Virus record (IMG/VR): IMGVR_UViG_3300030520_000902
Coordinates: 1-24,273 of that record
DNA: 24,273 bases
Source: a virus
Strand: one strand, 5' to 3'
The notes under the pieces: generated by a model
Told to the model about the DNA's origin: nothing
Seen by the model: only the letters and a program-made list of their open reading frames with translations
Database searches by the model: none
Shown: positions 6,054-24,146 of the stretch, piece by piece
Layout of the letters: each line of letters starts with the position of its first letter
How positions within the stretch are numbered: position 1 is the first letter of the stretch
Translations under genes and position numbers: made by a program

Positions 6054-6209
6054 AAGGTTTGGTTTTTGCCTGCGCGGCGCTTGTCTGGTTTCTCGCGGCG
6101 TTGGCCTCTCCTTGCTTTTCTTGGGGTCTGGTTGCCTGCGGCGCCTTGGTTTGGCGGTTGCTCTTGCTGTGTTGGCCTTTCCTTGCATTGTTAGTGGTCT
6201 ATTAGCTTC
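6054..6209 (+). repeat. Dispersed repeat, copy A, starting at the mdtC stop codon
   Basis: The sequence after the stop begins GGTTTGGTTTTTGCCTGCG, followed by CGCGGCGCTTGTCTGG. It holds two diverged tandem sub-units, each with GTTGGCCTYTCCTTGC (near 6102 and 6174), then TTAGTGGTCTATTAGCTTCG, which leads into the large inverted repeat. The same order of blocks recurs at 24054-24146 on the other strand, again starting at a gene's stop. Open frames across it (a protein-like string with FPCIVSGLLASPLCGA) are probably artefacts of the repeat, because the second copy gives the same string. It may serve as a 3'-end or terminator-associated element; that is inference. Confidence 0.8.
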
Positions 6210-6806
6210 GCCCCTGTGCGGGGCGGCACTTACTTTCTTTGTCCCACAGGGACTACCTTCGGGTCGCCGCCGCAAAGAAAGTAAGCAAAGAACGCGGGCT
6301 TGCAACCGCCAGCCTGTAGGTGTCCACCACTGGCATGAAGCCGGAGTGGTCCGCGCACGGAATCTGCCCTCGCACCACCCACGTTAGTGACAAAGGACTC
6401 ATTCATCCCGCCCGCGCACTACGTGCGCGGCGGATGGGTATGCAAGAGAAAGCGGCGGCGGAAGCCATCAGCCGGCAAGCATTGCCGCACCCTCGGAACC
6501 CAAGCAGATTGCCCCCATCCTGCCGAAGCCCCCCGGATATAGTAAGCATCCCTACAGAGTCTGCAGAAGGTATTATGCCCGACGGCGGGGCGCGAAGCGC
6601 GACGCTGGAGCGGATGAGCGCTTTGTCACTAACGGGGGTGGTGCGAGGGCGGCTCTCGTGCGCGGACCACTCTGGTTTCATGCCAGTGGTGAACACCTAC
6701 TGGCTAGCGGTTGCAAGCCCGCTTTCTTTGCTTACTTTCTTTGCGGCGGCGACCCGAAGGTAGTCCCTGTGGGACAAAGAAAGTAAGTGCCGCCCCGCAC
6801 AGGGGC
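6210..6806. repeat. Large inverted repeat: two arms of about 195 bp around a loop of about 207 bp
   Basis: The left arm (6210-6404) starts GCCCCTGTGCGGGGCG; the right arm (6612-6806) ends with its reverse complement. The arms stay alignable with few mismatches through GTTAGTGACAAAG. Each arm also contains its own 13-bp inverted repeat, CTTACTTTCTTTG and CAAAGAAAGTAAG (6229-6241 with 6273-6285; 6731-6743 with 6775-6787), so the motif occurs four times. The loop carries short hairpins such as GCGCACTACGTGCGC. Both arms contain small open frames with TTGMKPEWSAH, which I regard as spurious because they derive from the repeat. No transposase is present. It resembles a paired REP/MITE-like element in Paraburkholderia style. 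Confidence 0.85.
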
Positions 6807-10734: not shown

Positions 10735-12216
10735 ATGGACGCAACCTTCACCGTTCTACCGGCGTATGCCGAGCTGTTCTGCCTCTCCAATTTCTCGTTC
10801 CTGCATGGTGCTTCGCATGCGGAGGAGCTGGCCCAACGTGCGGCGCAACTGGGCTACTCGGGTCTGGCGATAACTGACGAATGCTCGCTTGCGGGAATCG
10901 TACGGGCGCACGTCGCCGCGAAGGAGGCGAACCTTCCCTTCGTTGTCGGCTCGTACTTCCGGCTCGTCAATGCCGATGGCTCGCCGGCGTTCGGTCTCAT
11001 CCTCCTCGCCCAGAACCGTGAGGGATACGGAAACCTCTCCGAACTCATAACGCTTGCCCGCACACGCGGACGGAAAGGCACGTACCGGCTGACGCCACAC
11101 GACCTCTCGCGGCCGGACCTGGAGAGCAGCCACCTTCGCGGCGTGCCGGACTGTCTCGCGATACTGATACCGCATTTCCCCGCCAAGGAGGACGTGCTCG
11201 ACGTCCAGCTTGAGTGGCTCGCGCAGACGTTTCCCAACCGCGCATGGTGCGGCCTTGTGCTGCACCAACGTGCCATGGACGATATTCACCGGGGGGCTGT
11301 CGAATACATCGCCGACGGCCGTGGCATTCCGGTCGTCGCACTCGGCCAGGCGGTGATGCATGTGCGCTCGCGCAAACCGTTGCAGGACACGATGACCGCA
11401 ATCCGTGTGGGCAGGCCGGTGCAGGAGTGTGGCTACGACCTCTCGCCCAACGCGGAGCAGCACCTGCGCTCCCGCTTGCGTCTCGTGAACCTGTATCCGG
11501 AATATGCGCTCGCAGAGACGACGAACATCCTGTCGCGTTGCTCGTTCTCGCTCGACGAGTTGCGCTATGAGTACCCGGACGAACTCGTGCCGAAGGGCGT
11601 CACGCCGACCGCTTATCTGCGGCAGGAGACCTATATTGGCGCCCGCCGCCGGTTTCAATCCGGCATCCCATATCACGTGCAGGAACAGATTGAACACGAG
11701 CTTGAACTCATCAGGGAGCTCGAATACGAGCCGTACTTCCTGACGGTCTATGACATCGTCCGCTTTGCCCGCAGCCAGCACATCCTGTGTCAGGGCCGGG
11801 GCTCAGCCGCGAACTCAGCGGTCTGTTACTGCCTGGGTGTGACAGAAGTCGACCCGGCGCGAGGCAACATGCTTTTCGAGCGTTTTATCTCGAAAGAGCG
11901 GGGCGAGCCGCCCGACATCGACGTCGACTTTGAACACCAGCGACGGGAAGAGGTCATTCAATACATCTACCGGAAATATGGCCGCGACCGTGCCGCGATA
12001 GCCGCGGCGGTGTCGACCTATCGTCCGCGTGGTGCACTTCGCGAAACCGGCAAGGCGCTGGGCGTCGACCCCCAGATTGTCGATGCCGTGGCCAAGAGCC
12101 ATCAATGGTTTGATGGGAAACAGGACCTCCTCAATCGTTTTTCCGAGTCCGGCCTGAACCCGGAGACGCCTCTGATTCAACTGTGGGCATCGCTTGCATC
12201 GCAACTGCTCGGCTTC
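10735..12216 (+). pseudogene. dnaE2: Error-prone DNA polymerase DnaE2, 3'-truncated at the phage junction
   Basis: DnaE2 (ImuC) is the SOS-induced C-family polymerase. Residues 1-494 are DnaE2: the signature CLSNFSFLHGAS at the start of the PHP domain, LAITDECSLAGIVRAH, the polymerase segment QGRGSAANSAVCYCLG, and PPDIDVDFEHQRREEVIQYI with two catalytic Asp (394 and 396). The match ends at SLASQLLGF; after base 12216 the open frame runs on 244 codons to 12951, but that part is the antisense of a phage gene. The usual protein has about 1050 residues, so the third catalytic Asp, the fingers, the beta-clamp motif and the OB region are missing. It cannot be an active polymerase. The remaining 3' half is not in the window. 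AGGA lies about 10 bases before the ATG. Confidence 0.92.
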
Positions 12217-12219
12217 CTT
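12214..12219. other. Junction between host dnaE2 and phage DNA
   Basis: Rightward dnaE2 homology ends and leftward phage homology begins within a few bases of 12217 (GGCTTCCTTT). Both genes are cut in mid-domain, so this is either a deletion or recombination joint, or an attachment site inside dnaE2. No integrase is next to it, and no copy of this sequence was noticed at the integrase end, which favours a deletion joint. Confidence 0.7.
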
Positions 12220-12894
12220 TACGAGTGCCGCCACGATCTTGCGGCGCGCCTTCAGGAAGCAGAGATCGCAGTTTCCAAGATCGCCTTGCGGGTCCAGTTG
12301 AAGATCAAACGGCTGTTCCCGCCAAAAATTCAGCACGTCGCTTTTGCTGACGTTGGCTCGTGCGAGTGGCAGAACCGGATAGCCGTCGCGGTTGTCGCGC
12401 GCAGGATTGAGCATGCGTGCAACACGGCCCGGTTCGTCCGCTCGAATGCCCATCACCGAATCCCATTCGTCAAAGCCATAGCCCCGCATGTAAGCGCCGC
12501 CTGTGCGCACCTTGAGGTTCGCGGTACACAGACGCATCGGCGGATTCGGCAGCATGCCCAATGCGCTATTCAACGTCGCGAATGGTTCCCCGTTACGCGA
12601 AGCCGTTTCGAATGTCACCGTGCGGTACCGGCACATGCGTTGCGGTTGTCCGTCGTTGAAGCCATCCCATTCGAGCCAAGTTATAGGGACGTTCCAGCGG
12701 CGCGCGCATTCGTCAATGAATACGAGCGTTTCTTCGCGTTCCTTTCCTGTGTTCTGAAACAGGACGTGACAGTCCGCAGGCAATCCTTCGTTCGCCTGCA
12801 GAATTTCGTGCAGCATGAAACCGCTCGTTCGGCCACCGCTGAAGCAGATTTGCGCGGGGCCGCAGACGATATACGGGGCGAGACTCACGAGCAT
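12217..12894 (-). pseudogene. Phage PAPS-reductase-like (adenine nucleotide alpha-hydrolase) protein, 3'-truncated
   Basis: Read leftward, the protein starts MLVSLAPYIVCGPAQICFSGG, with the PP-loop SGGRTS that binds ATP or PAPS. FQNTGKEREETLVFI, a GIRADEPGRVARM segment and GDLGNCDLCFLKARRK with a conserved Cys pair follow. These mark the phosphoadenosine phosphosulfate reductase family found in many phages, where the role is unknown (DNA or tRNA thiolation and sulfur supply are suggested). About 226 phage-derived residues remain; the open frame then continues 134 codons through antisense dnaE2 to a stop at 11815, giving a 359-residue chimera. I prefer the ATG at 12894, 4 bases after the upstream gene's stop codon, over the one at 12921. 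The Cys pair survives, so partial function cannot be excluded. Confidence 0.75.
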
Positions 12895-12898
12895 GGCT

Positions 12899-13120
12899 TC
12901 ATCTCTCGCGAAAGACTTCATCGAAGACGATGCGCAGGTCTTCGCCCTTGAGCGGCCTGCGGCCGTACCATTTCACCGCGAGCGCCGCGCGCTGGTCCGC
13001 GACGGCCACCCACTCACCGCCGCGCCGGACCGCTTCAGCGCGTACCTGCGCCCCCAGCGTGGTATGCGTGACCCCAGGCAATATCTCATGCGCGGGGAAC
13101 CTTAGAGCGTCGCGTGTCAT
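12899..13120 (-). CDS. Small conserved phage protein of unknown function (73 aa)
   Basis: I do not recognise a family. The protein is compact, with a basic middle and no Cys or membrane segment; a central strand-like part reads EWVAVADQRAALAVKWYG. GGGAG lies 7 bases before the ATG, a good ribosome binding site. The stop is only 4 bases before the chosen start of the PAPS-reductase-like gene, so the two form one leftward transcription unit. Coding is supported by the binding site and tight packing rather than by homology. Confidence 0.6.
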   Translation of the reverse strand: MTRDALRFPAHEILPGVTHTTLGAQVRAEAVRRGGEWVAVADQRAALAVKWYGRRPLKGEDLRIVFDEVFRER

Positions 13121-14880: not shown

Positions 14881-14921
14881 TCCCTTCCTACTCCCTTCCT
14901 ACTCCCTTCCTACTCCCTTCC
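14881..14921. repeat. 11-bp tandem repeat inside the replication gene, 3.7 copies
   Basis: TCCCTTCCTAC occurs three times without change (14881-14891, 14892-14902, 14903-14913), followed by a partial fourth copy TCCCTTCC (14914-14921). Because 11 is not a multiple of 3, each gain or loss shifts the reading frame. In the leftward gene the repeat encodes a basic linker (EGSRKGVGRE); in the present state the frame from the N-terminal half meets TAG at 14888-14890. Confidence 0.95.
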
Positions 14922-15340
14922 GTCCCACACTGCTCCATGATTACGTCGTGAGCGCCACCTGAAGCGGGCGGACTCCCGCCATTGCCTCTCGCCCCGAACC
15001 CCCTGTCGGGCGGGGGAAAGGCGGGCTTGGAAGGCCGGTTGATGACCTGGTGCTTTTTGAACGTCGGGATGTGCAGATACCGCTCTCCGGTATCACTCAC
15101 TGAATATTCGATGAGCAATCCCTGTTCTATCAGGCACACGATAAGCGGTTCCACCTCGATGTCGGCATCGTGCGAACTCGGAAACACCTGCATCTTCAGC
15201 TTCTCGGGGTCGCGTGGCAGGTTGCCGCAGTCGTCCGCAAAATTCCATGTGCCGATGAACAGCAACCGTGCTGCCAGCGGCACGCGTACAACCTGCGGAT
15301 TTGTCCAGAACTCAGGTTTGATCGTTCGGATGCGCGCCAT
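14888..15340 (-). CDS. N-terminal part of a split phage replication initiator (winged-helix)
   Basis: Begins MARIRTIKPEFWTNPQVVRV, then RLLFIGTWNFADDCGNL, LKMQVFPSSHD and LIEQGLLIEYSV. This is the well-known N-terminal winged-helix domain of phage replication proteins that bind the origin (O-like initiators in many phages of Burkholderia and related hosts). It ends after 150 residues at a TAG inside the 11-bp repeat; the expected C-terminal domain continues in another frame (14361-14735). GCGGAG lies 6 bases before the ATG. The domain alone could still bind DNA but would lack the part that contacts the loader. Assembly error, mutation or a reversible switch are all possible. Confidence 0.8.
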   Translation of the reverse strand: MARIRTIKPEFWTNPQVVRVPLAARLLFIGTWNFADDCGNLPRDPEKLKMQVFPSSHDADIEVEPLIVCLIEQGLLIEYSVSDTGERYLHIPTFKKHQVINRPSKPAFPPPDRGFGARGNGGSPPASGGAHDVIMEQCGTEGSRKGVGRE

Positions 15341-16458: not shown

Positions 16459-16803
16459 ATGCGAATTGTCATCGAAGCTCCCGACGACCTCGCCGAACTG
16501 CTGCAAGCGCGGCAGGCGATTGACGCTCTTTTGCACCCGTTGATGTTCAACGAGCCAGCCCGGGCACCGGTCGTGCGAGACAGACGCTCGCCGGTTCGCC
16601 TGCGCGAACTGGTGCTATCCGTGCGCACGCTCAACGCGCTGGCCGCCGAGAGCATTACCACGCTTGATTCGCTGCTGAAGTGCCGGACGTCCGACCTGAT
16701 GCGCCTGCCCGGTTTCGGGCGCAAGTCACTGGACGAAGTCCGGGGCGCGCTCGAATCGCGCGGCCAGCATCTTCAACCCGATAACCCGGAGTGTCAGGCA
16801 TGA
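16459..16803 (+). CDS. Phage protein with an RNA polymerase alpha-subunit C-terminal domain
   Basis: A 114-residue protein starting MRIVIEAPDDLAELLQARQA. Residues 48-102 closely follow the C-terminal domain of bacterial RpoA: LVLSVRTLNALAAESITTLD, then LMRLPGFGRKSLDEVRGALE. The E. coli residues that contact UP-element DNA (Arg265, Asn268, Gly296, Lys298, Ser299) align with Arg56, Asn59, Gly87, Lys89 and Ser90, so minor-groove binding should be retained. The N-terminal assembly domain of RpoA is absent; residues 1-45 are unrelated and partly helical. It may bind DNA or an activator independently of polymerase, or act as a decoy; the function is unknown. GAGGAAG lies 5 bases before the ATG. The stop overlaps the exonuclease start as ATGA. 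Confidence 0.78.
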   Translation: MRIVIEAPDDLAELLQARQAIDALLHPLMFNEPARAPVVRDRRSPVRLRELVLSVRTLNALAAESITTLDSLLKCRTSDLMRLPGFGRKSLDEVRGALESRGQHLQPDNPECQA

Positions 16804-17699
16804 ACACGGCAAGCGAGGAATGGCTACAGAAGCGGCGCACCGGGATCGGCGGCAGCGACGCGGCGATTGCATGCGGGCTGCACCCCTACGTCGCGCCGAT
16901 CGAACTGTATCTGGACAAGATCGGTGAAGCGCCTTTCGAGCGGGAAGACACCGAACGCATGCAGATGGGCCGGGCGCTTGAGGATACGATCGCGAGCGTT
17001 TTCGCGGAGCGCTTTGGCGTGAAGCTGCGCCGGCACAACGCGATGCGCCGCAACCCGCGCTATCCGTGGATGCTCGCCAACCCTGACCGGCTGATCGAAG
17101 GCGCGCGCGTCGGGCTCGAAATCAAGAACGTCGATTCGCTGGTCTACCGCTTCGGCCAGTGGGGCGAGCCGGATTCCGACGAAGTACCCGAGCCGTACCT
17201 GTTGCAGGCACTGCATTACGCGGTCGTCTTCGACTATCCCGAGTGGCACATCGGCGCGCTGGTCGGTGGCAACCGGCTGGTCCGTTACATCGTGCGGCGG
17301 GACGCTGAACTCGAAGAAATGATGCTCGATGCCGAGCGCGATTTCTGGCACTGCGTCGAGAAGCGCGAACGCCCCGAGATTGACTATGCCCGACCCGGCA
17401 CGCTCGCGATGCTGAAGAAGCTCCACCCAGGCACGGACGGTTCCACCATCGCGCTACCCGACGATATCGAGCACTGGCATCGCACGCTTGTGGATGCCGC
17501 GCAGTATGAAAAACAGTATCAGGCCGCAGTCGATTGCGCGAAGGCCCACATCCTGTTCGCGATGGGTGACTCCGCAATCGGTCGGCTTGCCAGTGGCGGC
17601 GAGTATCGCCGCAAGGTCATCGAGCGGAAAGGCTACACGGTGGAAGCATCGACCTATGTGGACTTCCGCTTTTCGAAGAAGGGGCAAGCCAATGAATGA
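16800..17699 (+). CDS. YqaJ-like viral recombinase (lambda-exonuclease-type 5'-3' alkaline exonuclease)
   Basis: Resects double-stranded DNA ends so that an annealing protein can load on the 3' strand. The 299-residue protein shows the PD-(D/E)XK core: GIGGSDAA at 15-22, MGRALED at 56-62, ANPDRL with Asp96, GLEIKN with Glu107 and Lys109, and YLLQALHYA with Gln136. These are the metal and catalytic positions of the YqaJ/Exo family. I take ATG 16800 (CGGAG 8 bases upstream), although a GTG 9 bases earlier is in frame. It overlaps the gene before it by 4 bases and the gene after it by 8, so all three are translationally coupled in the rightward early operon. Confidence 0.9.
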   Translation: MNTASEEWLQKRRTGIGGSDAAIACGLHPYVAPIELYLDKIGEAPFEREDTERMQMGRALEDTIASVFAERFGVKLRRHNAMRRNPRYPWMLANPDRLIEGARVGLEIKNVDSLVYRFGQWGEPDSDEVPEPYLLQALHYAVVFDYPEWHIGALVGGNRLVRYIVRRDAELEEMMLDAERDFWHCVEKRERPEIDYARPGTLAMLKKLHPGTDGSTIALPDDIEHWHRTLVDAAQYEKQYQAAVDCAKAHILFAMGDSAIGRLASGGEYRRKVIERKGYTVEASTYVDFRFSKKGQANE

Positions 17700-18795
17700 T
17701 GTCGTCGCAGCCAATCCGTTCGGCAACGAGGGACCATCACCGGGAGGTGGTGCGCTCGTCGCAGCCGAACAGTCGAAGGCCATCGCGGAAGTGCAGGCCG
17801 CGCTGCTGATCGCTCGCGCGAACCCACGCGATCCGCGTCGTGCGATGGATCGTATATTGCAGGACTGCATGCGCCCGTCGCTCGCCGAGGAAGCGGCCTA
17901 CCAGTATTCCCGCGGTGGGACCGATATCAGCGGCCCGTCAATCCGGCTCGCTGAAACGCTCGCGAAGCGCTGGGGAAACATGGAGGCCGGGGTGAAGGAA
18001 CTGAGCCGTCACGACGGCGTTTCAGAGTGCCTTGCCTACGCATGGGACTACGAATCGAACTATCGCGACGTGCGCACGTTCACGGTTCGCCACTGGCGCG
18101 ACCGGAAGAATGGCGCCGGTTATGCGGTCACCGATGAGCGCGATATCTACGAGATGGTCGCGAACTATGGCGCGCGCCGCAAGCGGGCGTGCATCCTGGC
18201 GCTGATTGACGGCGATGTCGTTGAAGCAGCAACGAGGCAATGCGAACTCACGCTCGCTGCAAGGATCGAGGTCACTGATGAACTGATTGCGCAGATGCTT
18301 GAACGGTTCGGCGCATATGGCGTGACGAAGGAAATGATCGAAAAGCGTATCCAGCGTCATATGTCTGCACTCACTCCCGCGATGGCGATGTCGCTCAAGA
18401 AAATCTATAACTCGCTGCGCGACGGCATGAGCGCGCCCGCCGAGTGGTTCGAAATGGGCGAAAGCCCCGCTGCGAACGTGGCCGCGCCCACCGCCGACTC
18501 GCGCACCTCGTCAGTCAGGCAGCGCATGAAGTCCCGCAGGGGCAAGGACAGTACTGCGCCCGCTGCGGCTGGAAGCAGGCCACAGGATGACGCGCCGGCA
18601 CAGGCCAAATCGAAGCGACACGAACGCGTGATGACCTACGCGGAAGTCGCCGATGCGCTGAACGTCGCGACCGGTTCGGACGCGCTCAACGCGGCGGCTG
18701 ACCTGATTCGCCACGTCAAGGACGACGCGCAGCGTACCGAACTGACGCAGCTTTACAGCACGCGCGCCGCCGAATTTGATGAGCGCGGGGTGTGA
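17692..18795 (+). CDS. Conserved phage protein, probable recombination partner of the YqaJ exonuclease
   Basis: A 367-residue protein of a common phage type, recognised by KAIAEVQAALLIARANPRDP, ISGPSIRLAETLAKRWGNME, DERDIYEMVANYGARRKRAC and LALIDGDVVEAA. The place directly after a YqaJ exonuclease is where phages keep a single-strand annealing protein (RecT, Redbeta or Erf class). This family is not clearly one of those, so the annealing role is inference. The N-terminal 250 residues look globular; a Ser/Lys/Ala-rich linker (about 265-310) follows, then a small C-terminal domain, MTYAEVADALNVATGSDALN. That domain plan also occurs in annealing proteins that bind host SSB or exonuclease. The start ATG overlaps the end of the exonuclease gene by 8 bases. 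Confidence 0.72.
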   Translation: MNDVVAANPFGNEGPSPGGGALVAAEQSKAIAEVQAALLIARANPRDPRRAMDRILQDCMRPSLAEEAAYQYSRGGTDISGPSIRLAETLAKRWGNMEAGVKELSRHDGVSECLAYAWDYESNYRDVRTFTVRHWRDRKNGAGYAVTDERDIYEMVANYGARRKRACILALIDGDVVEAATRQCELTLAARIEVTDELIAQMLERFGAYGVTKEMIEKRIQRHMSALTPAMAMSLKKIYNSLRDGMSAPAEWFEMGESPAANVAAPTADSRTSSVRQRMKSRRGKDSTAPAAAGSRPQDDAPAQAKSKRHERVMTYAEVADALNVATGSDALNAAADLIRHVKDDAQRTELTQLYSTRAAEFDERGV

Positions 18796-19048: not shown

Positions 19049-19558
19049 ATGCTCGACTTCCAGCGTCACCCCGTAAAGATCGCCCATATCAACGTCAGGA
19101 CCGAGACGCACGGTGACGAAGAAGTGACCGCCGTCGACCTGAAGCTGACCTTTGATGTGCCAAATTTCGTTCTCGACAAGCTCAGTCCGACGCTGCGGCC
19201 CTCACTGTACGAGGCCGCGAACGACGACATCTTCGGACCGGACGGGAACACGCTTTCACACGTCAAGAATCCGCAACTCGGCAGACTCAACTGGGCGGGT
19301 GAGCACGAACCCGTTTCACTGCATCTGCATTGCGGCGTGAAACCGAAAGACGACCTTCTGTTTACGGACTCCACTTTCGGAAAGATCAACTTCGAGGTCA
19401 AAGAAGGAGGCACCTGTTCGTTCGCTACCCGCGTGCAGATTCTGCCGAACGCCGCCGAGGCCGCGAAGCCGATGATGCTGCTAAAGCATGAAGTACTTGC
19501 GACGCTCGACACAGCAAATGCGTCGAACATTGACGGGCCGGATGATGACGGGAAATAG
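19049..19558 (+). CDS. Conserved phage early protein, possibly single-strand DNA-associated (169 aa)
   Basis: Reads HPVKIAHINVRTETHGDEEV, then AVDLKLTFDVPNFVLDKLSP, with a beta-rich body (HEPVSLHLHCGV, INFEVKEGGTCSFATRVQIL) and an acidic tail (DGPDDDGK). The family recurs next to exonuclease and annealing genes in phages of Burkholderia and Pseudomonas. A beta-rich body plus an acidic C-terminus is also the plan of SSB-type proteins, but no OB-fold motif is clear to me, so the role is open. AAGGAG lies 8 bases before the ATG. It follows the preceding gene by 15 bases. Confidence 0.7.
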   Translation: MLDFQRHPVKIAHINVRTETHGDEEVTAVDLKLTFDVPNFVLDKLSPTLRPSLYEAANDDIFGPDGNTLSHVKNPQLGRLNWAGEHEPVSLHLHCGVKPKDDLLFTDSTFGKINFEVKEGGTCSFATRVQILPNAAEAAKPMMLLKHEVLATLDTANASNIDGPDDDGK

Positions 19559-20415: not shown

Positions 20416-20646
20416 ATGAACGCAACTAAGGAAACCACCGAGCGCCCGGCTCGGGCCGACGACGCGCCGCTCACGATCGCGCAGTTCTGCGAGCGTTACG
20501 GCATCAGCAAATACATCTACTATCGGCTCCGCAAACGCGGCGAAATGCCCAGAGAGACAGTAGTCAGTCCGCGGCGTCGCGTAATACTGGCCGCGTCGCT
20601 GCGCGAGTGGGAGCGTCGCGTTGAGGCGAAAAGCCTGGAGCAGTAA
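20416..20646 (+). CDS. Excisionase-like / AlpA-like helix-turn-helix protein
   Basis: A 76-residue protein with a MerR/AlpA-type winged helix: LTIAQFCERYGISKYIYYRL, then the wing GEMPRETVVSPRRRVI and the closing helix SLREWERRVEAK. Such small proteins serve as recombination directionality factors (Xis) or as regulators of the integrase gene. Its place at the end of the rightward early operon and the integrase 1.9 kb away fit an Xis, although the ATPase gene now separates them. GGGAAGG lies 7 bases before the ATG. Confidence 0.7.
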   Translation: MNATKETTERPARADDAPLTIAQFCERYGISKYIYYRLRKRGEMPRETVVSPRRRVILAASLREWERRVEAKSLEQ

Positions 20647-20853
20647 TGCCCGCACTGCAAAGGAGCCTCGTGTACGTCACGGAGTTTTCAGGACTTCGCT
20701 CATCGGCTCAGCGTCGAAGCCGCAGCGCTCCAGACTTGTGGGTCGTATCTTGTCGCACTCCCATACCAAGAAAGTTCTTCTTCCAAAGTCGAGTTACACT
20801 GGTACGGTGCTCCTACGCGTTGTAACTATAAAATTTTCGAAAGGTGACGATCC
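20647..20853 (+). promoter_or_regulatory. Leader of the ATPase gene with a promoter-like -10 element
   Basis: Gene-free 207 bases, AT-richer toward the end. TATAAA lies at 20827-20832, but no convincing -35 is visible at 16-18 bases. GAAAGGTGA precedes the ATG at 20854. The gap and the change in composition suggest that the ATPase gene has its own promoter and is not simply part of the early operon. Confidence 0.35.
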
Positions 20854-22359
20854 ATGAAGGAAGTCCTTCGCGCTCTAGACTTGGGAAACTCGGTCGCGGA
20901 ATTCGACGACTCGCTTGAGAAGTATTTCGTCGAAAATGAGGCGTTCCATGCGTTGGTGAACGGCAAAGTGGATGTCGTTGCGGGCGACAAAGGCACCGGA
21001 AAGACAGCTTTATATAGAATTTTGAAAAAACGCTACGGCTCTTTGCCCGAGTTGAAAGGCATCGAAGTGCTCGCCGGATTCAACCCGGCAGGCAGTCCGG
21101 TCTTTCAGCGTCTTGTTCGTGAGGAGGTACTAAAGGAAGGACAATACGTCAGCGTTTGGAAAACCTATATTCTCGCGCTCGTTGGCAACTGGTTGCTCGA
21201 GATTGTCGGTGAGGACCAGTCGCAGAACTTTCGTGACCTTTCGGACATGCTGACGGAGACGGGCCTGCGCTCAAAAGACGATAAGCCCGAGACGATTTTC
21301 AGCAAGATCGTCAATGTAATACAGAAGGCGCTCAAACCAAAGACCGCGGAGTTGGAGTTCACTCTTTCAGAGACCGGCATCCCGATCGTCACTCCGAAGC
21401 TGAGCTTCTTCGACTCAGCGGAGGAGGAGCAGCCCAAGGAGATCACACATGAGAGAGCGCTGCGCCTCCTCGACGATTGCCTCGGAGAGTTGGGCTATTC
21501 CGTTTGGGTCGTGTTGGATCGGTTAGATGAGGCGTTCCAAGGGTTTCCCGCGGTTGAAATCCCAGCACTTCGCGCATTGCTGCGCACCTATCTCGATCTT
21601 CTCGAATTTGGAAACTTCCGCCTCAAGCTTTTCGTTCGCCGCGACTTATTCAGACGGATCATCGGCGACGGCTTTGTGAATCTTACGCACATCAACGCGC
21701 GAAAGATCGAAATCTCTTGGGACGAGGGCGATCTGTTGAACCTGCTCTGCCGCCGAGTACGCGACAACGCGGATGTCATAAGTGCGCTCCATGCCGCCAA
21801 CTTATCAGACGAGGAACTGTTTTATAAGCTGTTTCCGGCGAAGGTCGACGTCGCGACTCGTAAGCCAACTTCATGGAAATGGATCATGGGCCGTATTAGG
21901 GACGGCAATGACGTTAGGCCGCCACGGAATCTAATCGACCTTACCAAAATGGCTCGGGACGAGCAATTGAAGGCCGAGGGTCGAACGCCGCGCGCGTTTA
22001 GCACAGAACAGCCGGTAATCGCATCCGAGGCAATTCGAAAGGCGCTGGAAAAACTTAGCGCCCAGCGTGTCGAAGATACGCTCCTCGCCGAGGCGGGCGT
22101 TCAAACGGCGGCACTGATCCAGAGGTTCCGCCGTGCTAAGGCCGAACAGAATTTAGAAAGCCTCGCGCCGATACTCGGACTGGAAGGCGAAGCTCTGCAA
22201 AGCGGTATTCGACAACTCGTAGAGGTCGGTTTTCTAGAGGAGATAAAGACCAGTTGGAAGGTGCCTATGCTCTATCGAGACGGCCTAGAGATCACCCAAG
22301 GCAAGGCTTTCCAATCTGCCTCGACCGAACCAGAGGACGAGGATAGCGAGGTGGAATGA
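20854..22359 (+). CDS. P-loop ATPase (Sll1717-like family), candidate phage cargo or defence protein
   Basis: A 501-residue ATPase. Walker A is GDKGTGKT (44-51), with VDVVA as the preceding strand. Walker B is VWVVLDRLDEAF (217-228) with Asp222 and the DE pair 225-226. LKLFVRRDLFRRI (257-269) follows, with arginines in a sensor-like place, and DVRPPRNLIDL (353-363) resembles the sensor-2 region of KAP/STAND-type ATPases. Residues about 405-485 look like a winged-helix domain; the tail is acidic (EPEDEDSEVE). No membrane segment or nuclease motif is visible. I recall this type as the family named after Synechocystis Sll1717, which has no settled function. It sits alone between the excisionase-like gene and int, has its own leader and is less GC-rich than the phage genes, as expected of an acquired cargo gene. 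A defence role is inference. Confidence 0.78.
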   Translation: MKEVLRALDLGNSVAEFDDSLEKYFVENEAFHALVNGKVDVVAGDKGTGKTALYRILKKRYGSLPELKGIEVLAGFNPAGSPVFQRLVREEVLKEGQYVSVWKTYILALVGNWLLEIVGEDQSQNFRDLSDMLTETGLRSKDDKPETIFSKIVNVIQKALKPKTAELEFTLSETGIPIVTPKLSFFDSAEEEQPKEITHERALRLLDDCLGELGYSVWVVLDRLDEAFQGFPAVEIPALRALLRTYLDLLEFGNFRLKLFVRRDLFRRIIGDGFVNLTHINARKIEISWDEGDLLNLLCRRVRDNADVISALHAANLSDEELFYKLFPAKVDVATRKPTSWKWIMGRIRDGNDVRPPRNLIDLTKMARDEQLKAEGRTPRAFSTEQPVIASEAIRKALEKLSAQRVEDTLLAEAGVQTAALIQRFRRAKAEQNLESLAPILGLEGEALQSGIRQLVEVGFLEEIKTSWKVPMLYRDGLEITQGKAFQSASTEPEDEDSEVE

Positions 22360-22522: not shown

Positions 22523-23881
22523 TCACGCGGCCCGCTGCGTGGCATCGTTTGCGGCCTGTGCGGCGTGTACGCGGGCTTGATCCAGTGCAGCAATCGCGCG
22601 GGCGTTGAAGTCGGCATCGCGGTGCGCGTAGCGCATCGTCTGCTCAATGCGGCTGTGACCCATCCAGCGGCTGACCACATCCAGCGGAACACCATGTTGC
22701 ACGGCGCGCGTCGCAAAGGAGTGCCGCAGGTCGTGCCAGCGGAATCCGGTGATCTTCGCGGCCTTTAGCAGGTCGGACCATTGCGAGATTGCACGCAGAA
22801 GCTCACCCGCAGCGTTCGTGAAAACGTGGATCGGATGCACGTTGTCCTGGAAGCACTGTGCGTGCCACTCGCGAATGACTTCGAACGCCTCGGCGGACAG
22901 CGGGACAACTCGGGTGCGGTTTACCTTTGAGTTTTCACTGCGGACGGTGACTGTGCGTGCGTAGAGGTCGATATCATCCCACCGCAGGGTGAGCTGCTCT
23001 TTGCGTCGCAAGCCGGTGTTGAGTGCGAACAGCACCGCAGGTTTCAGAAAATCGACAAACGCATGATGAGGTTCGAAAACGTCATGAAAGCGGGGGTCCG
23101 CATTGATGCGTTTCCAGTCAAGCCGGATGCTTCGCTCGCGTTCGTCCAGCGCGACGCGGAGCCGACATTCTTCGTCAGGCTTGAGCCAGCGCACCACGCC
23201 TGAGCCTTCGTCCTCCTTCTCGATCCCCTGACCAGGATTCTCTTTGATGATTTTCCGTTCGTAGGCATTGGTCAGTAGGCCGCGTAGCGCATTCATTTTC
23301 CGGTTAGCGGTAGCAGGCTTCATGTACTGCGCCGGGGCAGAGGCGGTGGCGGGCTTCTTCACCCGCGCCAGTTCGGTCGTAACCCATTGCATGAGGTCAT
23401 CGCGCGAAACCTCGTTGAGAGCCTTGCCGAGGATATCTGCAAAATGCTCACGGATGTCAGCGATCGTCCGCTTTGCACGCTCCTTGTTCCGCGACTTGCC
23501 GACGAAATAATCGGCGTACGTTTTCGTCAGGAACTCCCCCCCAGTCGGGACCGCCTTGAGCCGTTCGGCGGTCACAGCGCGTGCGGCCTGTTTCGTGAGC
23601 AGGGTCACGTCATCATCGCTGCTGCGGTCGAGCGTCGCGCCCATTTTCTTTGCAAGCTCGCGCGCCACGCTGGGAGCAATCGCCGGATAGTGGCCGACCG
23701 TCTTGCGCGGGTGCTTGCCGTTAGGGCTAGACCAGCGGTAGTAGTATGTAACGCCGCCCTTAGGGGTGACCTTCACGCCGAAGCCGCGCAGGGCTGCGTC
23801 AGCGTATTCCTGATATTTGCCCGTGCCTCCCGCCTGGCGGATGTTTTCCAGAAAGTCACGATTGATGGTGTAACGCTGCAT
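22523..23881 (-). CDS. int: Tyrosine-type phage integrase
   Basis: Catalyses site-specific integration and excision of the element. The 452-residue protein has an N-terminal arm-binding part that begins MQRYTINRDFLENIRQAGGT and includes LRGFGVKVTPKGGVTYYYRW (DUF4102-like), a core-binding SAM-like region (about 118-215) and a catalytic domain with all key residues: Arg292 in NTGLRRKEQL, Lys319, His383 and Arg386 in WHDLRHSFAT, His409 in WMGHS and Tyr418 in MRYAH. It looks complete and active. GAGGG lies 7 bases before the ATG. The gene reads away from the nearby right end; the region upstream of its start carries a palindrome and TAGGGGAATTT repeats. Confidence 0.93.
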   Translation of the reverse strand: MQRYTINRDFLENIRQAGGTGKYQEYADAALRGFGVKVTPKGGVTYYYRWSSPNGKHPRKTVGHYPAIAPSVARELAKKMGATLDRSSDDDVTLLTKQAARAVTAERLKAVPTGGEFLTKTYADYFVGKSRNKERAKRTIADIREHFADILGKALNEVSRDDLMQWVTTELARVKKPATASAPAQYMKPATANRKMNALRGLLTNAYERKIIKENPGQGIEKEDEGSGVVRWLKPDEECRLRVALDERERSIRLDWKRINADPRFHDVFEPHHAFVDFLKPAVLFALNTGLRRKEQLTLRWDDIDLYARTVTVRSENSKVNRTRVVPLSAEAFEVIREWHAQCFQDNVHPIHVFTNAAGELLRAISQWSDLLKAAKITGFRWHDLRHSFATRAVQHGVPLDVVSRWMGHSRIEQTMRYAHRDADFNARAIAALDQARVHAAQAANDATQRAA

Positions 23882-24053: not shown

Positions 24054-24146
24054 GCCCCGCACAGGGGCGAAGCTAATAAACCACTAACAAAGCAAGGAAA
24101 GGCCAACGCCGCAGGAACACGGACAAGCGCCGCGCAGGCAAAAAAA
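24054..24146 (-). repeat. Dispersed repeat, copy B, starting at a gene's stop codon
   Basis: Read leftward from the stop at 24147 it gives TTTTTTTGCCTGCGCGGCGC, then GCGGCGTTGGCCTTTCCTTGC, TTAGTGGTTTATTAGCTTCG and CCCCTGTGCGGGG. This is the same order as copy A at 6054-6220, but copy B has one GTTGGCC sub-unit instead of two and lacks the large palindrome. In both cases the element begins at the stop of the adjacent gene and has the same direction as that gene. Confidence 0.85.

What the first reader, a model, noticed from the sequence alone, without database searches (positions are those of the whole stretch)
20854..22359. Solitary P-loop ATPase at the cargo position beside a phage integrase: candidate uncharacterised defence gene
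A 501-residue ATPase with clear Walker A (44-51) and Walker B (217-228) motifs, a sensor-like arginine region and a C-terminal winged helix lies alone between the excisionase-like gene and int. That slot in temperate phages and satellites often holds anti-phage or lysogenic-conversion genes. The gene has its own leader and a base composition unlike the phage genes. Its family (Sll1717-like, as I recall) has no settled role. It has no visible effector domain, so it would act alone through its ATPase or recruit a partner.
Basis: partly seen in the sequence, partly recalled or inferred. Interest (0 to 1): 0.62.

Follow-up and report, generated by a model that had tools for sequence, protein, structure and literature searches.

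The report
Prophage ATPase of Fun(Z) defence family
Beside its integration gene, a bacterial virus carries one lone ATP-using switch protein; it belongs to the same protein family as the gene with which phage P2 protects its host from rival viruses, so it is very probably a virus-against-virus defence gene, though nobody has tested this copy.

Summary
In detail: a 501-aa P-loop ATPase (20854-22359, +) sits alone between an excisionase-like gene and a tyrosine integrase. It is a full-length member of NCBIfam NF047389, 'ATPase_Sll1717' (175 bits, cut-off 75). That family is not without a role. Phage P2 Fun(Z), a known abortive-infection gene against T5, T-even and other phages, scores 209 bits in it, and an orthologue of the lab-tested anti-phage protein DS-41 scores 113. 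The window protein is a distant member, not an orthologue of either. Context fits mobile defence cargo. A syntenic sister phage carries, in the same slot but opposite orientation, an ATPase from a different clade of the family; other relatives hold unrelated cargo there, including a SIR2 gene. Chromosomal homologues are solitary, patchy across phyla, and about 13 GC points below their flanks (35 of 36 lower), some beside restriction-modification genes. The AlphaFold model resembles ORC/Cdc6, STAND/NLR, BrxC and RdrA ATPases and shows no effector domain. Some relatives are fused to an NDT/DNPH1-like domain, and one such gene neighbours a close homologue. Most likely function: prophage-encoded anti-phage switch; mechanism inferred. 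New member of a known kind; its interest is a concrete route into how Fun(Z) works.

The parts
20854..22359 (+). Solitary P-loop ATPase, NF047389 (Sll1717/Fun(Z)) family, 501 aa
   Evidence: 175.4 bits, cut-off 75; PDC-M28C 2.2e-16; phrog_14159 1.7e-62; fold; tree
20647..20853 (+). 207-nt leader between the excisionase-like gene and the ATPase; no sigma-70-like promoter found
20416..20646 (+). Excisionase-like HTH protein, left border of the slot; 64% identical (over 50 residues) to its counterpart in sister phage L157
   Evidence: HTH_17 3.4e-5, just under the Pfam cut-off; PHROG excisionase 2.8e-5
22523..23881 (-). Tyrosine integrase, right border of the slot, convergent with the ATPase; 47% identical to the L157 integrase
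   Evidence: Phage_integrase 2.1e-30; phrog_1
19049..19558 (+). Early phage protein conserved at the slot border in related phages
16791..17699 (+). YqaJ/RecE-like exonuclease of the syntenic early module (51% identical to L157)
17692..18795 (+). Early phage protein, phrog_3657 (listed ORF starts at 17488; likely real start near 17692 by comparison with relatives)
14888..15340 (-). Replication-initiation-like protein of the early module
   Evidence: phrog_1408 3.5e-29

Best explanation
The gene is lysogenic-conversion cargo of a temperate phage: a single-protein anti-phage (superinfection-exclusion or abortive-infection) ATPase of the Sll1717/Fun(Z) family, inserted in a variable slot between excisionase-like gene and integrase. 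SHOWN here: family membership, intact and conserved ATPase motifs, ORC/Cdc6-STAND-like fold, solitary mobile AT-rich gene, occupation of the same slot by another clade of the family in a sister phage, and membership of P2 Fun(Z) and a DS-41 orthologue in the same family. INFERRED: the prophage expresses it; the protein waits as a nucleotide-bound switch, is triggered by some event of another phage's takeover (replication or DNA/nucleotide metabolism is the likeliest), and its ATP-driven change then stops that phage's growth, probably together with the cell, as the Fun(Z) abortive-infection system does by a still unknown route. With no effector domain of its own it acts either directly (oligomerising on DNA or replication proteins) or through a partner; NDT/DNPH1-like proteins are the best partner candidate. 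Confidence refers to the anti-phage function; for the trigger-and-abort mechanism about 0.35.
For: Family: NF047389 175 bits, cut-off 75; P2 Fun(Z) 209 bits over its full length and DS-41 orthologue L117 113 bits in the same model; hhalign of the homologue profile against DS-41 E 1e-8 over residues 1-304 and against Fun(Z) E 5.6e-8 over residues 6-120. Activity of relatives: Fun(Z) 'blocks growth of T5' and inhibited all tested Tevenvirinae, Vequintavirinae and Markadamsvirinae plus a Felixounavirus (PMC8594841); DS-41 validated (PMC13092281). Slot: sister phage L157 is syntenic (int 47%, xis 64%, exo 51%), and its slot holds a clade-B ATPase, 34% identical, in inverted orientation; other relatives hold a SIR2 protein, an NDT-like gene plus a putative membrane protein, or other genes. 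Recurrence beside integrases in 8 of 15 viral loci and in the P2 S-V slot. Horizontal transfer: GC 13 points below flanks, 35 of 36 loci lower, against 0 of 86 control genes more than 10 points below; patchy multi-phylum tree. Defence neighbours. Fold resembling defence and immune ATPases BrxC, RdrA, Avs3 and NLRs as well as ORC/Cdc6.
Against: No member of the window's own clade (A) or of clade B is known to me to have been tested. Fun(Z) and DS-41 are at most about 20% identical to other family members and lie on long branches, so function may have shifted. Several clade A chromosomal copies stand alone among housekeeping genes without a defence neighbour. No promoter was recognised. The record lacks structural genes and may be a remnant. 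Global TM-scores to solved structures are low (0.3-0.55).
Confidence: 0.75

Rival explanations
1. Lysogenic conversion for something other than phage defence: the ATPase alters host physiology (for instance nucleotide metabolism or stress response) or excludes plasmids, and any effect on phages is secondary.
For: P2 fun also makes cells sensitive to FUdR (record note); many family members sit singly in chromosomes without defence neighbours; cyanobacterial members are fused to a ParA-like domain.
Against: Two members have direct anti-phage activity (PMC8594841, PMC13092281). Slot-mates and neighbours include SIR2, restriction-modification and Mrr-like genes.
Confidence: 0.13
2. A phage-maintenance protein: an ORC/Cdc6-like ATPase that helps replication, partition or control of integration of this phage.
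For: Best fold matches are ORC/Cdc6 initiators; the gene lies next to int and xis.
Against: Related phages with the same kind of int and early module lack it or carry an unrelated gene there; L157 has a different clade in the opposite orientation; homologues occur at many unrelated positions in unrelated phages and chromosomes.
Confidence: 0.07
3. A passenger with no present function in a decaying prophage remnant.
For: The record lacks structural genes and the left phage-host junction truncates genes on both sides; one close homologue (L002) has a frameshift.
Against: The ORF is intact, every family-invariant residue is kept, and dN is 0.19 with saturated dS against close homologues.
Confidence: 0.05

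Closest known systems
Phage P2 Fun(Z) (NC_001895, 15675-17261)
   Same: Same curated family (NF047389); P-loop ATPase of about 500-530 aa; single-gene, non-essential cargo of a temperate phage; lysogenic conversion; no recognised effector domain
   Different: Very distant (separate long branch); P2 keeps it in its tail-gene region just before FI, not beside int; according to PMC8987985 fun is flanked by inverted repeats, which was not tested for here
DS-41 / NF053860 (DefensePredictor)
   Same: Homologous over the ATPase core, residues 1-304; DS-41 orthologue exceeds the NF047389 cut-off; lab-tested anti-phage
   Different: Window protein scores 49 bits against a cut-off of 370, so it is not a DS-41 orthologue; the L117 C-terminus has cysteine pairs (zinc-ribbon-like) that the window protein lacks
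PADLOC PDC-M28C (phage defence candidate)
   Same: E 2.2e-16 over residues 17-306
   Different: To my knowledge the M in the name marks a multi-gene candidate; here the ATPase is alone. No held paper names PDC-M28
Prophage and satellite defence hotspots (Rousset et al. 2022, PMC9122126)
   Same: Small variable slot between two conserved phage genes, in their Vibrionaceae example between repressor and integrase; defence cargo
   Different: This slot (xis to int) belongs to a different phage group and is described here from few relatives
ORC/Cdc6 and STAND/NLR ATPases (2qby, 2fna, BrxC 9zll, RdrA 8hrb)
   Same: AAA+-like core plus C-terminal winged-helix-like region
   Different: TM 0.3-0.55 only; PF24389 ORC-CDC6-like scores 16.8 against a cut-off of 27

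Membership tests
NF047389 P-loop ATPase, Sll1717 family | Whole-protein score over the curated cut-off (75 bits) | tested here: met
   175.4 bits, residues 10-463 on profile 1-417 of 454
NF047389 P-loop ATPase, Sll1717 family | Intact Walker A and Walker B and family-invariant residues | tested here: met
P2 Fun(Z) as orthologue | Groups with Fun(Z) rather than with another clade | tested here: not met
   Window in clade A (99/99); Fun on a long branch in another part of the tree
Fun(Z)-type superinfection exclusion (function) | Gene blocks growth of other phages when expressed | not testable with these tools
   Needs plaque assays
DS-41 (NF053860 equivalog) | Score over the 370-bit cut-off | tested here: not met
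   49 bits
PDC-M28 candidate system | All components encoded together | tested here: inconclusive
   Component C-like ATPase found; the window neighbours were not scanned against PADLOC for other components
ORC-CDC6-like (PF24389) | Score over the Pfam cut-off | tested here: not met
   16.8 bits against 27
ParA-fused Sll1717-type proteins (cyanobacterial) | N-terminal ParA-like domain | tested here: not met
   Window protein starts directly with the ATPase; fusions found in L091 and others
Prophage cargo hotspot | Same flanking phage genes with different cargo in relatives | tested here: met
   L157, L166, L172, L177, L191, L197; excisionase-like left border recognised in L157, L166 and L177 only

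The most novel reading that the evidence does not exclude
The Sll1717/Fun(Z) family is an ATP switch whose output is an attack on the deoxynucleotide (or NAD) pool through NDT/DNPH1-like N-glycosidase-type domains: in cis in the phage-borne fusions (L022, L029, L030, L032 and L034), in trans for solitary members such as the window protein and Fun(Z). That would explain both the FUdR sensitivity given by P2 fun and Fun's preference for large phages with their own nucleotide metabolism, and would make one nucleotide-targeting immune family out of genes now filed as unknown.
Probability: 0.13. Interest if true: 0.75.

Novelty: new member of a known kind. Interest (0 to 1): 0.5.

Why it matters
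How P2 Fun(Z) stops T5 and many other phages is still described as unknown (PMC8594841). Placing Fun(Z), DS-41 and a widely spread set of solitary prophage ATPases in one family, some with nucleotide-hydrolase-like domains attached, gives a set of natural variants with which that old question can be tested. It also shows that these ATPases are repeatedly recruited as prophage cargo, and that the slot between excisionase and integrase in this phage group is worth searching for further defence genes.

Tried and rejected
Sequence search against solved structures: no hit. tblastn against phage records: no match; plasmids: only three at about 25%. Papers naming Sll1717 or PDC-M28: none held. A scan for relatives of the 19634-20185 gene found none. 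Scans with the integrase alone or as a two-row alignment gave only L157, so the slot was read mainly through exonuclease relatives. Integrases from 393 Burkholderiaceae genomes were at most 40% identical and their loci too short to judge the slot. A sigma-70 promoter for the gene: not found. Att repeats joining the left junction zone and the right end: none of 10 nt or more. A conserved partner gene: none seen next to clade A members, so a two-gene system was rejected for this clade. An ORC/Cdc6-type initiator role was rejected because the slot is variable. Some PADLOC tally hits (kinase and cyclase models) were not mapped to loci and are not used as evidence; PD-T4-6 models can match ordinary kinases.

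Full report
WHAT IS THERE. Window 20854-22359 (+) encodes a 501-residue protein with Walker A GDKGTGKT (44-51) and Walker B VWVVLDRLDEAF (217-228). It stands alone between an HTH/excisionase-like gene (20416-20646) and a tyrosine integrase (22523-23881, minus). Its GC is 54.1% against 61.1% for the rest of the phage part and 63.0% for the host part. The record is an IMG/VR virus record of 24,273 bases; it holds host genes on the left and a phage early module (replication protein, RusA, YqaJ exonuclease, excisionase-like gene, integrase), and I recognised no structural genes.

FAMILY. NCBIfam NF047389 'P-loop ATPase, Sll1717 family' matches at 175 bits, cut-off 75. PADLOC gives PDC-M28C at 2.2e-16; PHROG 14159 (unknown function) at 1.7e-62. 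NF053860, the anti-phage protein DS-41, matches weakly (49 bits, cut-off 370). Two kinds of member with laboratory activity were found by testing them against the same model: P2 Fun(Z), 209 bits over its whole length, and a DS-41 orthologue (L117), 113 bits. Profile comparison agrees: E 1.1e-8 with DS-41 over residues 1-304 and 5.6e-8 with Fun(Z) over residues 6-120. The P2 record says of fun 'cloned gene blocks growth of T5; nonessential; lysogenic conversion; confers sensitivity to FUdR'. [quoted passage not shown] DS-41 is one of 42 validated systems of DefensePredictor (PMC13092281). No held paper mentions 'Sll1717'. The relation is distant: Fun(Z) and DS-41 lie on long branches, at most 20% identical to the other rows.

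STRUCTURE. AlphaFold2 with 42 homologues gives pLDDT 88.6, pTM 0.84. Foldseek against the PDB: Cdc6/Orc1 (2qby, 3.9e-6), the archaeal ATPases 2fna and 2qen (TM to target 0.55), BREX BrxC (9zll, 9zdx), RADAR RdrA, plant NLRs, Avs3. These are ATPases that act as switches or loaders, many with winged-helix domains. Overall TM-scores are low, so this places the superfamily, not the function. No extra domain for an effector is visible; confidence falls in the acidic C-terminal tail (about residue 490 onward).

THE SLOT. The only IMG/VR relative of the integrase (L157, 47%) is syntenic with the window: exonuclease 51%, 19049-gene 47%, excisionase-like gene 64%, replication protein 39%. Its slot also holds an NF047389 ATPase (191 bits), but that protein is only 34% identical, points the other way, and falls in clade B (support 100/99), whereas the window protein is in clade A (99/99). 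The simplest reading is two separate acquisitions of the same family at the same place. That contig also encodes a second family member near its other end (L187:3-1247, 142 bits). In exonuclease relatives the region between the early genes and int holds other cargo: an NDT-like gene and a putative membrane protein (L166), a SIR2 protein (L197), a TPR/aspartyl-protease protein (L172), DUF1254/DUF1214 proteins (L177), almost nothing (L191).

OTHER LOCATIONS. Of 15 distinct viral loci of clades A and B (window included), 8 have a tyrosine integrase within 5 kb (window, L157, L001, L002, L007, L011, L012, L019). Assuming a quarter of random prophage genes would be so placed, p is 0.017; the quarter is my rough assumption. 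L008 lies exactly between P2-like genes S and V, where P2 has orf30, a region named as a site of acquired genes (PMC3091744). By my reading of the sequences L013 is beside the portal gene and L009 beside a terminase gene. In E. coli 43 of 5,426 complete genomes carry a close copy of another family member; in the one read it lies between a DUF977 gene and hokD of a Qin-like prophage. In Burkholderiaceae 37 of 393 genomes have a member above cut-off.

CHROMOSOMAL COPIES. Clade A spans Pseudomonadota, Planctomycetota, Actinomycetota, Chloroflexota, Bacillota, Thermodesulfobacteriota and others with little host order. The gene has no constant partner or locus. Over the 36 chromosomal loci examined it is on average 13.1 GC points below its flanks, lower in 35; control genes from eight of the same genomes have a mean of +0.3 and SD 2.6 points, and none of 86 is more than 10 points below. 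Scanning up to two genes on each side against PADLOC, 146 families match at E 1e-10 or better among 126 neighbours, against 16 among 126 control genes; families, not genes, are counted. Mapped examples: HmaC (L044, 4.6e-108), type IIG enzyme (L045), type II methyltransferases (L053, L056), Mrr-like PDC-S02 (L068, 3.9e-93). In L068 the ATPase sits 15 and 18 nt from a methyltransferase-like gene and PDC-S02.

DOMAIN FUSIONS. Other members carry N-terminal domains. Cyanobacterial and Chloroflexi members have a ParA-like domain. A group of phage-borne members (L022, L029, L030, L032, L034) has about 290 extra residues; four sequences of this type (L029, L030, L032 and the genomic L127) match PF05014, nucleoside 2-deoxyribosyltransferase, below the gathering score (9e-5 to 0.013). 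The model of this part (pLDDT 79.8) matches DNPH1 with TM to target 0.66 (E 0.004, prob 1.0) and a plant TIR domain; the very top hits by E-value are other Rossmann-like proteins with low TM-scores. A stand-alone PF05014-like gene neighbours the ATPase in L001, and a similar gene fills the slot in L166. The record note that fun confers FUdR sensitivity points to the same chemistry. This is a hypothesis, not a result.

HOW IT MOST LIKELY WORKS. Shown: intact conserved ATPase, switch-like fold, mobile cargo in a variable phage slot, family with two tested anti-phage members. Inferred: prophage expression, sensing of another phage, ATP-driven activation, arrest of that phage with the cell. Either the protein acts alone on DNA or replication proteins or it uses a partner; which one is open. 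Function as anti-phage gene 0.75, this mechanism about 0.35.

VERDICT. New member of a known kind.

Noticed in passing
window 10735-12921: dnaE2 is cut off near 12216 (after ...SQLLGF) and runs straight into a phage PAPS-reductase-like gene (11815-12921, minus) that appears cut at the same point; no dnaE2 remainder was recognised in the 390 nt right of int. Deletion, rearrangement or an assembly join.
   Followed up: partly
window 6063-6224 and 24054-24144: Inverted copies of a 65-66 nt sequence (85-91%) in the two flanks, 17.8 kb apart; probably a dispersed intergenic repeat of the host. A further 232-nt inverted repeat lies at 6210-6441 / 6575-6806 (87%).
   Followed up: no
L187:3-1247 (IMGVR_UViG_2918835809_000002): The window's sister phage contig encodes two different Sll1717/Fun(Z)-family ATPases, one in the int slot and one near its other end.
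   Followed up: partly
L022, L029, L030, L032, L034 (N-terminal ~290 aa): Phage-borne Sll1717-family proteins fused to an NDT/DNPH1-like or TIR-like domain; the invariant residues are listed.
   Followed up: partly
L068:5637-10532: Apparent operon in an Akkermansia MAG contig: methyltransferase-like gene, Sll1717-family ATPase, Mrr-like PDC-S02, with gaps of 15 and 18 nt.
   Followed up: partly
L197:13744-15984: A 747-aa SIR2 protein with a SEC-C motif lies beside the integrase of a related phage; an uncharacterised defence candidate.
   Followed up: partly
L002:1275-2775: The 73% homologue is interrupted by a frameshift near 2357 right beside its integrase: pseudogene or sequencing error.
   Followed up: no
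L042:2413-3861: Neighbour of a clade A ATPase with a SIR2-like looking N-terminus (ILGAGFSKALS) but no Pfam or PADLOC match.
   Followed up: no
window 14881-14921: Three perfect overlapping copies of a 19-nt sequence repeating every 11 nt (unit TCCCTTCCTAC) near 14.9 kb in the early region.
   Followed up: no
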